Source of the DNA: Vulcanisaeta distributa JCM 11216
GTDB lineage: Archaea > Thermoproteota > Thermoprotei > Thermoproteales > Thermocladiaceae
Assembly (NCBI RefSeq): GCF_001315985.1
Contig: NZ_BBBI01000001.1
Coordinates: 1 to 64,000 of the forward strand
Reading direction: 5' to 3'
Length of the DNA: 64,000 nucleotides
Shown here: positions 48,276 to 53,811 of the stretch, piece after piece
Position numbering within the stretch: position 1 is the stretch's first letter
Layout: each line of letters opens with the position of its first letter
Program-made: the position numbers and the translations under genes
Notes under the pieces: model-generated
What the model was told of the DNA's origin: nothing
Databases searched by the model: none
The model's input: only the letters and a program-made list of their open reading frames with translations

Positions 48276-48857
48276 TTAGCGGAGTAGCTTCGTTAATTTA
48301 TTCACAAAGTCCTCACCAAAGTACTCACTCAGTCTGAGACTCCTTATTACCGACTCTGGACTTGAACCCTGAACCTGGCTCCTAATAACCTCGCCAACCT
48401 CCCATGGAAATAGTATCCACTTATCCGTGGTACCCACGTAATAGTCAGGCTTAATCTTCGACCAAGGCTTAACATAGAGAGTTGCCGTCCTCACCTCCCT
48501 GGCGCCATAGAACCTAAGTATGTCTCTGGCCACGGCAAGGGTCTTCCCGGTGTCCGTAACATCATCAACAACCAGCACACTCCTGCCCCCCCGTAAATCA
48601 CGTATTATTGGGTAAGTAACCACAGGCTCCTCACCCTCCCCCCCAATCCTCGTACCATAACTCACGAGCCCAAGAATCACCAAGTCATCAACACCGAGAA
48701 AATCCGAAATAAGCTTACCAACGATGTAACCACCCCTAAGAATAGCAATTACCGAGTCAGGCCTATAACCAGACTCCTTAATCATCAATGAGAGGTCCAA
48801 CGATAAATCCACAAGTCTCTGCCAATTAAGGACTAGGAACTCCATTAATTGGTTCAA
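48276..48857 (-). CDS. Purine-type phosphoribosyltransferase
   Basis: An intact 193-residue PRTase. PRPP-binding motif SVLVVDDVTDTGKTLAVARD (residues ~95-113), N-terminal hood-like AILRGGYIVGKLISDFLG, and the C-terminal base-binding region KWILFPWEVGEVIRS, where the WILFPWE pattern is typical of archaeal hypoxanthine/xanthine PRTases. Start ATG 48857 or 48845. It converges on guaAB, in keeping with purine salvage. The exact base used is not determinable. Confidence 0.85.
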   Translation of the reverse strand: MNQLMEFLVLNWQRLVDLSLDLSLMIKESGYRPDSVIAILRGGYIVGKLISDFLGVDDLVILGLVSYGTRIGGEGEEPVVTYPIIRDLRGGRSVLVVDDVTDTGKTLAVARDILRFYGAREVRTATLYVKPWSKIKPDYYVGTTDKWILFPWEVGEVIRSQVQGSSPESVIRSLRLSEYFGEDFVNKLTKLLR

Positions 48858-48931
48858 TGAAATAATGATGTTAAAAGGCTTTCCTCATGGTAAGAACAAC
48901 ATTACCACAAATAATTAAACAATTTGCCCCC

Positions 48932-49005
48932 TGCATGCACCCACACCACTGGGTCCCAGCGGCCCGGTTTCGCGGGTCGTTGGGTGGCCCAATGGCGTGA
49001 ATGCA
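48932..49005. ncRNA. Structured RNA candidate (long GC-rich hairpin)
   Basis: A 74-base nested hairpin in an AT-rich gap. Outer TGCAT/ATGCA (48932-48936 / 49001-49005). Middle 13-base arms (48942-48954 / 48987-48999) pair with one G-U and two A-C mismatches. The upper 12-base arms (48955-48966 / 48973-48984) pair fully with two G-U, closed by loop GTTTCG. GC islands in AT-rich intergenic DNA of hyperthermophiles are often stable RNAs. I cannot assign a class: no tRNA, SRP, RNase P or C/D-box signature is seen. The strand is unsettled. Confidence 0.5.
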
Positions 49006-49193
49006 AGGCAGGTATGGGCTCTATCATTATTTAATCCTAATATATTTATATTATTTACCCTTATCGATCTTTCTTAAAATACATATAAATTATATGTATA
49101 GCATATGTGTATTATAGTCTTCATATTTTAAATTTAAACTTTTTATTCGATATAGGCAAAAGATTGAAAAATCAAGAATAGAAATAAAACAAT

Positions 49194-49403
49194 GTGAAAA
49201 GGACAATAAAGCAATGTAAGGAGAAGTTTCTTGACTGCGCATTTGATGTAATAGTTAAGGCTAAGTTAGGACTCATTGACAAGGACGAGGCATTCGACGC
49301 ACTTTGGGAGTACCTAGTTAATGTTGAGTATGAAGTTAAGATTCTCGAAAGGAGGATCAGCATGAGCGATAACGTGGGGGGGAAAGAAGCCAATAGTGGC
49401 TAG
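49194..49403 (+). CDS. Small helical charged protein, unknown
   Basis: 69 residues from GTG 49194: KRTIKQCKEKFLDCAFDVIV then DEAFDALWEYLVNVEYEVKI. It is amphipathic and helical with two cysteines and a short polar tail. Spaced leucines/valines suggest a small dimeric coiled coil. No family is recognised. It precedes the secreted-protein cluster by ~150 bases; AT-rich DNA upstream likely holds its promoter. Confidence 0.45.
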   Translation: MKRTIKQCKEKFLDCAFDVIVKAKLGLIDKDEAFDALWEYLVNVEYEVKILERRISMSDNVGGKEANSG

Positions 49404-49559: not shown

Positions 49560-50438
49560 ATGGGTATGGGTTACAGGTCAAGGCTCTTACTTATTATCGC
49601 CGTGGTCGTAGTTGCCGTTGTCCTATTCGTGGTTAGGTACTTCCTCATACCCAGGCACTTCCTCACATCGTATGTAATGCCTAAGGCCATTGATTACGGC
49701 TTCCTCTATTGCAACAATCACTTCATAGTTATTCCTGGAAATTCAATGGTTATTCTCCGTTATCACGTTCATGGCGATGTAACCATTAATGGCGTAGTCA
49801 TCTACATGGCTTTCCCAGCTGACTTAATTAATGCAACCTTAAACGCCTTCTTGAGGCTGCCAAATCCTAATAATGCCATGATGCTTGGTGTCTATGTCAA
49901 TGGCAAGTTAATTGCCGTGGATAATGACTCGTCGCCGATCCTTGGTTTAAAGACTTCTGTGAGTATACCATACCATTACGGTAATGAGACCGTGACCTTC
50001 TGGCAACTACTGAGCCTTAGAAATGAAACACACACCCTAGTTGAGTACACAAGCTATGGAGTCACCCTCCCAACAATCAACCTAACGCCAAGTGATACCT
50101 TGACGGTCATCATCTACTCAGCAGTACCCTACGCACTACCCTCGTGTGCCATGACTAACGAGAGTTCTGAGGTTGGGTTAATGGTTGAGGAGCATTGGAT
50201 CGGGTTGATCGGCATTTACGGCGTGTTCAACGCCACACCAACGGCCGAGCAGCTCTACATGGAGGGTAGGTACATAACAGAGGTACCCATAATCTACGTA
50301 ATAAACGTTACAGGCCCAATAAGCCAATTACCGCAGGAACTAACGCCAGGACTACTCACCAATGTGAGGTCATTCGCCATCGGGTACGCGCCATCATTCG
50401 CAATCGGACAAACACTACCACCAACAGGCAATGGGTGA
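49560..50438 (+). CDS. Signal-anchored extracellular protein, unknown family
   Basis: About 292 residues in an intact frame. The N-terminal helix (LLLIIAVVVVAVVLFVV, residues ~8-24) is a signal anchor. The ectodomain starts LIPRHFLTSYVMPKAIDYGF, has many N-x-T/S sequons, and contains VIPGNSMVILRYHVHGDVTI, which recurs as a remnant at ~3500. The C-terminus ends FAIGQTLPPTGNG. The ATG at 49560 is preferred. Its stop overlaps the next start (TGATG), so it is cotranscribed with the next secreted gene. Function unknown. Confidence 0.6.
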   Translation: MGMGYRSRLLLIIAVVVVAVVLFVVRYFLIPRHFLTSYVMPKAIDYGFLYCNNHFIVIPGNSMVILRYHVHGDVTINGVVIYMAFPADLINATLNAFLRLPNPNNAMMLGVYVNGKLIAVDNDSSPILGLKTSVSIPYHYGNETVTFWQLLSLRNETHTLVEYTSYGVTLPTINLTPSDTLTVIIYSAVPYALPSCAMTNESSEVGLMVEEHWIGLIGIYGVFNATPTAEQLYMEGRYITEVPIIYVINVTGPISQLPQELTPGLLTNVRSFAIGYAPSFAIGQTLPPTGNG

Positions 50439-51299
50439 TGGACATGGTGAGTAAGCTCAAGATTACCTCAGCAATCGTAGTATTAATCCTCGTAGTACTA
50501 ACTGCGTTAATAATGCTACCGAAGCAAGCCGCTGCGCAAAGCAATTCCTGCATGCAAGCCATTGGCAACTGTAATTATGAGTTCACGACAAATGGAGTAA
50601 CGCCAAGCTTTGTTAGTGCCCAGGCATATATAACAAACACGATGGCTGTACAGTCCTACACTGGGGGGGAGACTGTACTTGCATTACTGTATAACCCAGA
50701 CATAAATATGGTGTGCGGCCCACTTGCCTGGTACTACGGAAGCACTGGGTATTGGGACCAGGGAGTTATAATATACGGTGTGATTATGAACCCGCCAGCA
50801 ACCGGGCACCATAGGTAATCTATACCTCATGGTACAGACATATAATTGTTCAGGATATTTAGTATGGAATAACTTACCTCCTGACCTCAGCCAACCCACA
50901 GCTACGGACGTTCCATGGCCGCTCGTCTCCGGTTCTGAGTGGGAGATTATATACTATGTTGGTAATAATGGCTTGATTAACCAGGTTTATGAGTACGTGT
51001 ACATACCAGTTAATGGAGGGGGGGAGTATTATCAGGAATACATAACTATTCAATCCCAATACGCGAATCGTTGGTACAGATCTAACGTGAATTGGGGCGG
51101 CAGCCCTGGCGGTGGTTCAGTGAACTTCTACCCAGGCGGTTCCGGCCAGTTCTTCTATAATTCTAACGTGAACCTATATCAAGGCCCATTAGCTGCTAAT
51201 GCTGCGGAAAGCTCCAACGTAAACTACACCCAAATGTACACTCCACCACCAAACACATGCACCCTATATGAACTATACCAGGACTTCCAGACAACGTAG
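50438..51299 (+). CDS. Secreted protein with Sec signal peptide, unknown
   Basis: About 285 residues. Signal peptide KLKITSAIVVLILVVLTALI with probable cleavage near QAAAQS (residues ~32-37). The mature part is N/Y/G/W-rich (NCNYEFTTNGVTPSFVSAQA, then NVNWGGSPGGGSVNFYPGGS), resembling other beta-rich surface proteins. The frame breaks at ~50806 (one extra G; PATGTIGNLYLMVQTYN expected) and the second frame runs to 51299. Start ATG 50438 or 50444. It may be a structural or adhesion protein. Confidence 0.6.
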
Positions 51300-51333
51300 C
51301 TTAGCCATTACATAAAGCCTATAACTCAAAACC

Positions 51334-51358
51334 AAAGCCCCCCCATTATGGGGCTTTT
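51334..51358 (+). terminator. Terminator-like hairpin
   Basis: AAAGCCCC pairs with GGGGCTTT just after the stop at 51299, followed by TTCCTCC. The 8-base stem and T-rich start fit transcription termination. Confidence 0.45.
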
Positions 51359-51424
51359 CCTCCACTCAACTCCCCCCCTTTAAAAGCTAATTAGCCAGTA
51401 CCGTGATTGGGGAATTGACTAAGT

Positions 51425-52813
51425 ATGAGGCTTGGAAGGACAATAGGGCTAGCGAGCATAATACTATTCACGCTACTCATGATGCTCCCAAGCCATGTAA
51501 TGGCAATGCTATACTGGCGCTTTGGCGGTGGGGGGGCATACCACACGTGGTGGTTGGCACGAACTCCTACTCAACACCATCAACAGGCTATGTAATAAAA
51601 CCAAGCACTATGGTTTACCAACAGAACTCTGGAGGCTATGCTAGCCACGGCACTGCCTCCTACCAACCAAGCACGACCACTGTCAATGTACCCACGACAA
51701 ACACCATAATCACAAAGGTAGTCACCCAAACCACGACAATAACATACCACACATACACGACAATAACAACCTACTACCCAATCATTAGCTACATAGCCCA
51801 GTACTTCATGACCTGGATGACGCCAAGGGGGGGCATGTGCCAGAATGGGCTTTACCGTCCACGGTAGTAACAGCCCCAATGAGTGGGGGGGACGCTTCAC
51901 GTACGTACCAGCCGTGACTGCCGTATTCAACTACACTGGCTTTGGCCTACAGGTTGGCGTTAAGCTGGTGCCCCCCCAGATAACGGGCTGGAGGCCCCCC
52001 CAACCAGGCAACCCAAGCCCCCCCAGCTCCCCCCCCAAGCCCAAGCCCACCACGCATAATACCAGGGAATGAAACACTAAACATAACGCTCTCAATACCA
52101 AGCAAGCCACCCACAGCCTACTTCACCTACGGTGGCGGAGGCAATCCAAATCCAAAGGGCACTGTTTATGTGCCCTACTACAATCCACAACTCGGCTTCC
52201 TACCAGACCTAATAAAGGGCGGTGGATTCCTCACTGCCGCCTTCCTCGACGGCGGTGGTGACGCCCTACAGTGGATTGGAGCCAACACGTACAACATCGG
52301 CCAAAACATCTACACCCAGTCCCAGGTCATTGCGAATGAGGTCCAGGCCGCGGCGCAGGCTGGTAGTAACTGGTTAATACAGCACACGCAGGGCATACCA
52401 GTACTCAACTACCTCGGGCAGATCGGAGCCTACACCATCAATGCGATAGGCAATGGCATTGCCTACATAACCTCCACTGGGGGGGGAGCGCCATTGGTAG
52501 TGGCCTCATGAGTATTGGCGAGTCCACCTACACTGCTGGGTATAATATTGCCAATATTGGTAACCAGCTCGGGCAGGAGTCACAGACCTACAGCGTCTAC
52601 GGCACCTACCAATCAGTGCAGGTGAGCCCAGGGCAGTCAATTACATTACCGAGTACGTACATGACAACGTATAGTGGGAGGCCTGGCGGTAGTGCCCAGT
52701 GGTTCATTGATGGCGGTAATAACCCATCGAGCCCATTTGCCCAGTTGGTCCAGGACCTACTCAAGCCTGGCAACATGTACCCAATGCCCTCACTGTTCGG
52801 CATCACTTGGTAA
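51425..52813 (+). CDS. Large secreted protein with proline-rich linker
   Basis: Four frames abut and form one chain of ~460 residues. The signal peptide at ATG 51425 reads MRLGRTIGLASIILFTLLMM followed by LPSHVMA. Then come a T/Y-rich segment (TITKVVTQTTTITYHTYTTI), an extracellular domain (FTYVPAVTAVFNYTGFGLQV), a proline-rich linker (~51970-52050, inflated by C7 runs), and C-terminal GQNIYTQSQVIANEVQAAAQ plus a Q/S/Y-rich end. Breaks are near 51530, 51833, 52055 and 52490. The GTG at 51403 opens a different frame that bypasses the signal peptide. Probably a cell-surface protein; no family name. Confidence 0.5.
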
Positions 52814-52843
52814 CGCCCCCCCTGGGCTTGCCAGGGGCTTTTA
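52814..52843 (+). terminator. Terminator-like hairpin
   Basis: CGCCCCCCCTGG and CCAGGGGC form a stem directly after the stop at 52813, followed by TTTTAAAC. A facing hairpin (C6 TTAAATCC TCAA G7) at ~52867-52889 could end the convergent gene. Confidence 0.45.
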
Positions 52844-52880
52844 AACTCAAAAACAATCAAATTTTTCCCCCCTTAAATCC

Positions 52881-53779
52881 TCAAGGGGGGGTGAAGCCAG
52901 GGCTTGGCACGCTGGGAGTCTCATTAACGGCTTGAGGCCAGGAGACTACTGCCTTACCATTGTTCCAGTATATCCAGGCGTTTGTGACGTATTCCTCAGT
53001 TCCGGTAACGCCCGGCGTGCTTGGTGCTGGTTGCCAAGCCGAGCCATTCCAGTAGTAGAGGGCTAGGATGACATTGGCACTTGTGAAGTCCACATCGTAT
53101 TGGTTGGCGCCGGGCCCGCCAATCACCAAGCCCGTCCCAGCATTGAATGGGAGCCTGGGCACTATCGTGGCATTACCCACTGGGTATTGATAGTACCAAT
53201 CAACATTAATGCCATCAAGGGAGTAGCCGAAGTAGGCAATGCCATTGGCTATCTTTATTATGAGCCACCCGCAGGTGGCTCCGTAGTAAACATGGGGGGG
53301 ATACAATGCTACCAAGTTTGATTGGCAAGATATTACTGGCATTCCATTAATGTTTCTCGTAGTGCAACCGCTTGGTGGTGACCAGACATTTACACCAAAG
53401 CCTGGCTCCCAAGCCCCACCCTCCTCATACGCCGCTGTCGAGTACACGTCCTGTATCCAGTAGCCATTACTCAACTGTGCATTGAGTTGTATCGAGTATG
53501 TATTTGGTATTGCCGTGTTCACGCAGTAGTAGCCCGCGATTGCCGTGGTTGGTGGGCCTGTGTAGCTAGGCCAACGGCTTGGTTTGTTACCCTCATCAGC
53601 CTTGGTTTGGGGGGGCTTGGTTTTGGGTTGGTGGGCTTGGGGGGGCCTGTGTTTGGTTTGTATTTGGCCCGTGGGTTAGGAGGAGTGTTAGGCTGGCCCC
53701 CAATGATTAGGGCTAGGGTGGCTAGGAATAATCCGAGGAATACCAGCCCGATTACCCTAAGCACGCCCATTCTCGCCAC
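52881..53779 (-). CDS. Thermopsin-like secreted protein
   Basis: About 295 residues after frame joining. Start ATG 53779: MARMGVLRVIGLVFLGLFLA is a signal peptide/anchor. A proline-rich linker (KPTNPKPSPPKPR) follows. The mature domain has NTAIPNTYSIQLNAQLSNGY and WIQDVYSTAAYEEGG, close to the thermopsin core SFSLQLNAVLEM/WVQNVL seen at 37435-39673. Two C-run regions (53610-53650) disrupt the linker, and the join near 53560 restores PSYTGPPTTAIAGYYCVNTA. Two intact cysteines are near CTTRNINGMPVISC. ATTTAAAG at ~53801 (minus) is a probable TATA box. Protease activity is unproved. Confidence 0.65.
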
Positions 53780-53811
53780 CCAATACCTGACTGGCTCAAG
53801 GCTTTAAATAA

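What the first reader, a model, noticed from the sequence alone, without database searches (positions are those of the whole stretch)
48932..49005. 74-base GC-rich nested hairpin in an AT-rich gap
Three collinear stems (5, 13 and 12 base pairs, only two mismatches plus a few G-U) cap in a 6-base loop. The flanks are strongly AT-rich. This is a classic sign of a stable RNA in hyperthermophiles, but no known family fits by eye.
Basis: seen in the sequence. Interest (0 to 1): 0.6.

Follow-up and report, generated by a model that had tools for sequence, protein, structure and literature searches.

The report
New small-RNA gene family in Vulcanisaeta
The hairpin is the core of an undescribed small RNA gene, read from the opposite strand, that heat-loving archaea of one family keep in one to three copies together with a second RNA that shares its tail; nobody yet knows what it binds.

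Summary
The hairpin is real (z -4.5 on +, -5.8 on -) but it is part of a larger element on the minus strand: a ~96-nt rod, window 49019..48924, with a TATA-like box 29 nt upstream of its conserved start GAGCCC. Homologues occur in 18 of 25 genomes of the family (three of four genera, including Vulcanisaeta) and nowhere else among 300 sampled genomes of the phylum. There are one to three copies per genome. The base stem is supported by compensatory changes (95.5% of cells paired; 33-50% when the partner is slid) and by a strong strand asymmetry (54 G-U versus 5 A-C cells), which points to RNA read from the minus strand. Rfam has no match. Unlinked copies in one genome are 90-100% identical inside the RNA but unrelated outside it. 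Every genome with this RNA in which I looked also has a second element, "B": a GC hairpin followed by the same ~18-24-nt 3' segment. That segment differs between genomes yet mostly matches within a genome, even where it no longer pairs well with its own 5' arm. I infer a trans-acting RNA whose 3' segment is read by a partner that B also binds. Transcription and partner are untested.

The parts
49043..49050 (-). TATA-like box (TATAAATA), first base 29 nt upstream of the conserved start GAGCCC; probable promoter of RNA A
   Evidence: TATA-like 8-mers about 30-31 nt upstream of GCCC in most copies, although upstream sequences of locus types A1 and A2 differ
48924..49019 (-). RNA A, conserved structured unit (GCCCAUACCUGC...GCAGGGGGCAA); probable transcript starts about 49021 and ends in the U-containing stretch about 48921-48908
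   Evidence: homologues, compensatory changes, covariance-model match E 6.8e-25, identity between unlinked copies stops at these borders
48988..49019 (-). 5' arm of the base stem, GCCC-AnA bulge-CCUGC-CU-UGCAUUCACGCCAUUGGG
48958..48987 (-). variable apical part (CCCA/CG/CCCG stems and loop); differs in length and sequence between genera
48926..48957 (-). 3' arm of the base stem
48928..48946 (-). 3' segment GUGUGGGUGCAUGCAGGGG shared with the second RNA 'B' of the same genome (own genome, contig C10:55644-55662, just after a metallophosphatase gene)
48276..48857 (-). neighbouring gene, phosphoribosyltransferase (PF00156); a TATA-like box CTTTTAAC (about 48868-48876) lies between RNA A and this gene, so it probably has its own promoter
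49194..49403 (+). divergent small ORF, no Pfam match; the other neighbour

Best explanation
Window 49019..48924 (-) is an independent non-coding RNA gene (RNA A). Shown by sequence: a conserved rod-like fold with compensatory changes on the minus strand, one to three copies per genome, homogenised between unlinked loci, restricted to the family. Inferred: it is transcribed from its own TATA promoter, starts at GAGCCC and ends just after GGGGGCAAAU. Its working part is the 3' arm, about 20 nt, which is folded back on the 5' arm in RNA A but lies open behind a GC hairpin in a second RNA, B. The match between A's 3' arm and B within each genome, kept through two independent rewritings of the segment, is best explained by one partner that reads the segment in both RNAs, most likely an RNA-binding protein or RNP. 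A would be the stable, self-masked form and B the open form, so that they cooperate or compete for that partner. Probability that this is a minus-strand RNA gene: about 0.88. Probability of the shared-partner mechanism given that: about 0.5.
For: RNA gene: fold z -5.76. Homologues in all Vulcanisaeta-genus genomes searched except the fragmentary G006, in four of five g2 genomes and in all three g4 genomes. Base stem 95.5% paired, 18 cells changed on both sides against 5.6 in shuffles, 33-50% paired when the partner is slid. 54 G-U versus 5 A-C cells on the minus strand; sense matches score 109.7 bits versus 51.1 for the antisense of the same site. TATA-like spacing. A1/A2 within a genome are 90-100% identical in the RNA with chance-level flanks, while between species syntenic flanks can be better conserved than the RNA (G000_A2/G001_A2: flanks 0.88 and 0.92, RNA 0.83). 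Shared segment: B follows a hairpin in every genome where it was examined, and B's best match is its own genome's A 3' arm in 15 of 17 genomes (related species tie). Two diverged lineages changed both together: G011 CTGGGCACGCACGGGGG in A and B on different contigs, and G017/G020 CGGAGCTACATGGGGG in both. In G017/G020 A's own 5' arm pairs better with foreign segments than with its own, so pairing with that arm alone does not explain the match. No full-length G-U-compatible complement elsewhere in nine Vulcanisaeta genomes apart from one chance match.
Against: No transcript has been seen; all promoter and end points are inferred. The A/B match could be maintained by gene conversion, which evidently acts between A1 and A2. 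In G012 the B segment differs from A at two positions and in G018 at two others, so the match is not strict. The neighbouring genes differ between genera (PRTase, POR gamma, SfsA, ilvD, xylose-isomerase-like), so context gives no hint of a pathway. No partner protein was identified.
Confidence: 0.5

Rival explanations
1. A and B are an antisense pair: the 5' arm of A pairs with the open 3' segment of B by strand exchange, and A's 3' arm is the internal competitor.
For: Predicted A 5' arm:B duplexes of -18 to -42 kcal/mol, -37 to -42 in the typical Vulcanisaeta tested. In Vulcanisaeta B lies at the 3' end of a metallophosphatase mRNA, a plausible target.
Against: Own pairs are not better than foreign pairs (G017 A with G000 B -35.7, with own B -24.9; G012 A with G000 B -29.7, own -24.0). 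A and B agree even at positions unpaired in the duplex (G017). In g2 and g4 B is not behind the phosphatase gene.
Confidence: 0.18
2. The conserved thing is a DNA site (for example for an origin, recombination or chromosome-organising protein), and the hairpins are incidental or act as DNA cruciforms.
For: Two or three nearly identical sites per genome; in g2 and g4 the two sites face outward from a ~210-bp AT-rich gap, which resembles the layout of an origin.
Against: 54 G-U versus 5 A-C cells and sense scores far above antisense show that one strand's pairing is what is kept. Identity between copies stops at the inferred transcript ends.
Confidence: 0.1
3. A and B agree only because gene conversion keeps copying the segment between loci; the RNA gene is real but the 3' segment has no special role.
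For: A1 and A2 are clearly homogenised; in g2 and g4 A and B are inverted copies ~210 bp apart.
Against: A and B share only ~24 nt and in G011 lie on different contigs; conversion of so short a tract between unlinked loci in two lineages is a demanding assumption (inference).
Confidence: 0.17
4. A guide RNA of a known archaeal kind (H/ACA, H/ACA-like or C/D box).
For: Size, single hairpin, hyperthermophile of the order that holds the H/ACA-like RNAs of Pyrobaculum.
Against: No Rfam match, no K-turn with tandem G-A pairs, no pocket 14-16 nt from a 3' ANA box, no C/D boxes; conserved AnA lies in the 5' strand of the base stem. The 3' segment changes between congeneric species, unlike rRNA targets.
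Confidence: 0.04
5. A repeat or mobile hairpin element (REP or MITE kind), or a terminator of the neighbouring genes.
For: Hairpin in an intergenic gap, several copies, B directly behind a stop codon in Vulcanisaeta.
Against: Only 1-3 copies of A, kept at the same places across species; compensatory changes; absent from phage, plasmid and viral collections at the tested sensitivity.
Confidence: 0.04

Closest known systems
H/ACA-like sRNAs sR201-sR210 of Pyrobaculum (PMC4652768)
   Same: Single-hairpin small RNAs of the same archaeal order, found by comparative genomics, restricted to a narrow taxon
   Different: Those carry a K-turn, free guide strands or a pocket and usually an ANA box 14-15 nt from the stem; RNA A is a nearly continuous rod without these, and its 3' segment varies between related species
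Archaeal intergenic trans-acting sRNAs (reviewed in PMC5867862, abstract read)
   Same: Intergenic RNA with its own probable promoter, no annotated function, no full-length complementary target found
   Different: Two unlinked copies homogenised within a genome and a second RNA that carries the same 3' segment
Split tRNA gene pieces of Caldivirga (recalled as a lead; split archaeal tRNAs are the subject of PMC3218864, abstract only)
   Same: Separate transcripts in the same family of archaea that share or complement short GC-rich segments
   Different: ARAGORN finds no tRNA in these loci; no bulge-helix-bulge motif (inspection); the shared segment is 3'-terminal in both and not complementary

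Membership tests
H/ACA or H/ACA-like guide RNA | K-turn or K-loop with tandem sheared G-A pairs in the upper stem | tested here: not met
   No tandem G-A seen in the predicted folds of the A sequences (inspection)
H/ACA or H/ACA-like guide RNA | Internal loop or free guide strands, with an ANA box 14-16 nt from the upper stem at the 3' end (PMC4652768) | tested here: not met
   Base stem is nearly continuous; the only conserved AnA is a bulge in the 5' strand
H/ACA or H/ACA-like guide RNA | Binding of Cbf5, Nop10, L7Ae | not testable with these tools
   needs biochemistry
C/D box sRNA | C box RUGAUGA and D box CUGA | tested here: not met
   No such boxes conserved in the alignment (inspection)
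Any Rfam 15 family | Covariance-model score above the curated threshold | tested here: not met
   0 matches in the window at gathering scores; in homologous loci only weak matches far below threshold
Archaeal SRP RNA | Match to RF01857 | tested here: not met
   SRP RNA is elsewhere in the genome (G000:C4:24830-25137) and in four relatives
tRNA or tmRNA, including split tRNA pieces | ARAGORN call in the loci | tested here: not met
   none in window or six homologous loci; split pieces tested only by inspection
Structured non-coding RNA gene | Fold conserved through compensatory changes | tested here: met
Structured non-coding RNA gene | Own promoter | tested here: inconclusive
   TATA-like boxes at similar spacing in most copies, consensus only; not clear in all g4 and some g1 copies
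Structured non-coding RNA gene | Transcript | not testable with these tools
   no RNA-seq at hand

The most novel reading that the evidence does not exclude
A two-RNA system of one archaeal family: a self-masked rod (A) and an open-tailed RNA (B) whose shared ~20-nt 3' segment is rewritten in concert in both and is read by a fast-evolving common partner, a kind of RNA-based recognition not described in archaea.
Probability: 0.3. Interest if true: 0.75.

Novelty: new variant of a known kind. Interest (0 to 1): 0.52.

Why it matters
Very few trans-acting RNAs of hyperthermophilic Thermoproteota are known beyond guide RNAs, SRP and RNase P. A conserved, multi-copy RNA with a companion that carries the same tail is a ready target for small-RNA sequencing and pull-down in cultured species (V. 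distributa, C. maquilingensis), and the concerted change of the tail makes its partner identifiable by looking for a factor that changed in the same lineages.

Tried and rejected
Rfam at gathering and relaxed thresholds: nothing credible. tRNA/tmRNA: none. SRP RNA stand-in: rejected, SRP RNA is present elsewhere. Mobile-element reading: no match in viral contigs with two patterns for the 5' half of A, phages or plasmids; eight viral contigs match the 3' segment alone but without the B hairpin and look like chance. Third nucleic acid complementary to the 3' segment: a G-U-permissive search in nine Vulcanisaeta genomes finds the A and B loci plus one chance match. Target of the A 5' arm: besides A itself, a 16-of-17 match inside the coding region of an HdrA-like gene in three genomes and scattered single matches; the HdrA match follows protein conservation and is within the expected noise, so it is only a weak lead. 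A 5' arm:B pairing as the sole constraint: not supported.

Full report
OBSERVATION. The sequence at 48932-49005 forms a nested hairpin that no shuffle matches, on either strand. The minus strand is the better one (z -5.76, 18 consecutive pairs at the base). The window has no Rfam match and no tRNA. The flanks are AT-rich and the gap lies between a phosphoribosyltransferase gene (48276-48857, minus; PF00156) and a small unassigned ORF (49194-49403, plus).

WHAT IS CONSERVED. A DNA search with 48900-49030 finds two strong places in the window's own genome (this one and G000:C5:19333-19435) and a short one (C10:55629-55664), and strong homologues in nearly all same-genus genomes. That g2 is Caldivirga is my own inference from the genome size of G012. 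I call it RNA A.

RNA, NOT DNA, AND WHICH STRAND. Over 15 distinct sequences from three genera the base stem is paired in 95.5% of cells, against 92.5% in column shuffles and 33-50% with the partner slid; 18 cells changed on both sides against 5.6 expected. RNAalifold gives six pairs with changes on both sides. The more distant G011 copy keeps the stem with a largely different sequence. On the minus strand 54 cells are G-U and only 5 are A-C; in the opposite strand those 54 would be mismatches. Cells count sequences, not independent events. The covariance model scores the sense strand far above the antisense strand of the same site (109.7 versus 51.1 bits). TATA-like boxes lie about 30-31 nt upstream of GCCC in most copies although the upstream sequences of the two locus types are different. 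These are consensus matches; transcription is not shown.

DISTRIBUTION. The model R1 matches 18 of 25 family genomes (genera g1, g2, g4; not g3) and no other genome of 81 in the class. A broader model R2 matches 12 of 300 genomes across the phylum, all of the same family. Absence from g3 rests on five incomplete genomes.

COPIES AND CONCERTED EVOLUTION. Most Vulcanisaeta have two copies: A1 beside the phosphoribosyltransferase gene and A2 beside the gamma subunit of pyruvate:ferredoxin oxidoreductase. Within a genome A1 and A2 are 90-100% identical in the RNA while 60 bases on either side are at chance level; between genomes the RNA is often 77-87% identical while syntenic flanks can be better conserved. 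The copies are therefore homogenised, and the homogenised tract ends at the inferred RNA ends.

THE SECOND RNA. Each genome with A that was examined also has an element B: a GC hairpin followed within a few bases by the 3' segment of A. G005's B was not identified with certainty. In Vulcanisaeta B follows the stop codon of a metallophosphatase gene (PF12850); in g2 and g4 B and A are divergent, ~210 bp apart, across an AT-rich gap. The segment differs between genomes, but A and B mostly agree within a genome: B's best or joint-best match is its own A in 15 of 17 (the closest species tie, so the informative cases are few). The clearest are G011 (A and B on different contigs, both CTGGGCACGCACGGGGG) and G017/G020 (both CGGAGCTACATGGGGG). 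In G017/G020 the change opens a 4x4 internal loop in A, so base pairing with A's 5' arm is not what keeps A and B alike; A's 5' arm there pairs better with foreign segments. Exceptions: G012 and G018, where B differs from A at two positions.

MECHANISM. Best supported: A and B are trans-acting RNAs whose shared 3' segment is read by a common partner, masked in A by its 5' arm and open in B. The partner is not a nucleic acid with a full-length complement in the genome, so a protein or RNP, or short pairing, is left. Gene conversion as the only cause of the A/B agreement, an A-B antisense pair, and a DNA site remain as rivals. The RNA-gene claim itself I hold at about 0.88, the shared-partner step at about 0.5 given that.

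KNOWN KINDS. It is not an H/ACA, H/ACA-like or C/D guide, SRP RNA or tRNA by the features tested here. It works at most like an intergenic archaeal sRNA. No paper in the open-access library that I searched names it; that library lacks most subscription papers.

Noticed in passing
A2 loci, e.g. L038, L042, L048, L049, L054, L056; g4 loci L109, L115: The promoter of the A2 copies carries an extended conserved block TAATAC-N(8-11)-CTTTACAAAAATCTATTTTAA, partly kept in g4, longer than a TATA box and suggestive of a regulator site.
   Followed up: no
L047 and L056 (G005): In this genome the A copy has an A1-type upstream region and an A2-type downstream region, as if A1 and A2 had recombined and exchanged flanks (or the assembly is chimeric).
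   Followed up: no
A RNAs of g2 and g4 (L058, L063, L064, L109, L115, L116): Internal loop GAAA / AAGUAAA between base stem and apical stem resembles a bulged-G (loop E, sarcin-ricin) motif; in Vulcanisaeta it is replaced by additional stems.
   Followed up: no
L044 (G008:C11), beside L045 and L046: V. distributa JCM 11217 has a third A copy at a place different from A1 and A2.
   Followed up: no
L327, L329, L330: A 16-of-17 G-U-compatible match to the A 5' arm lies in the coding strand of an HdrA-like gene in three Vulcanisaeta genomes; probably protein conservation, but a possible target.
   Followed up: partly
window 50435-53807: A cluster of ORFs rich in G, N, Q, P and Y, some with hydrophobic N-termini, without obvious relatives by eye; possibly secreted or surface proteins.
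   Followed up: no
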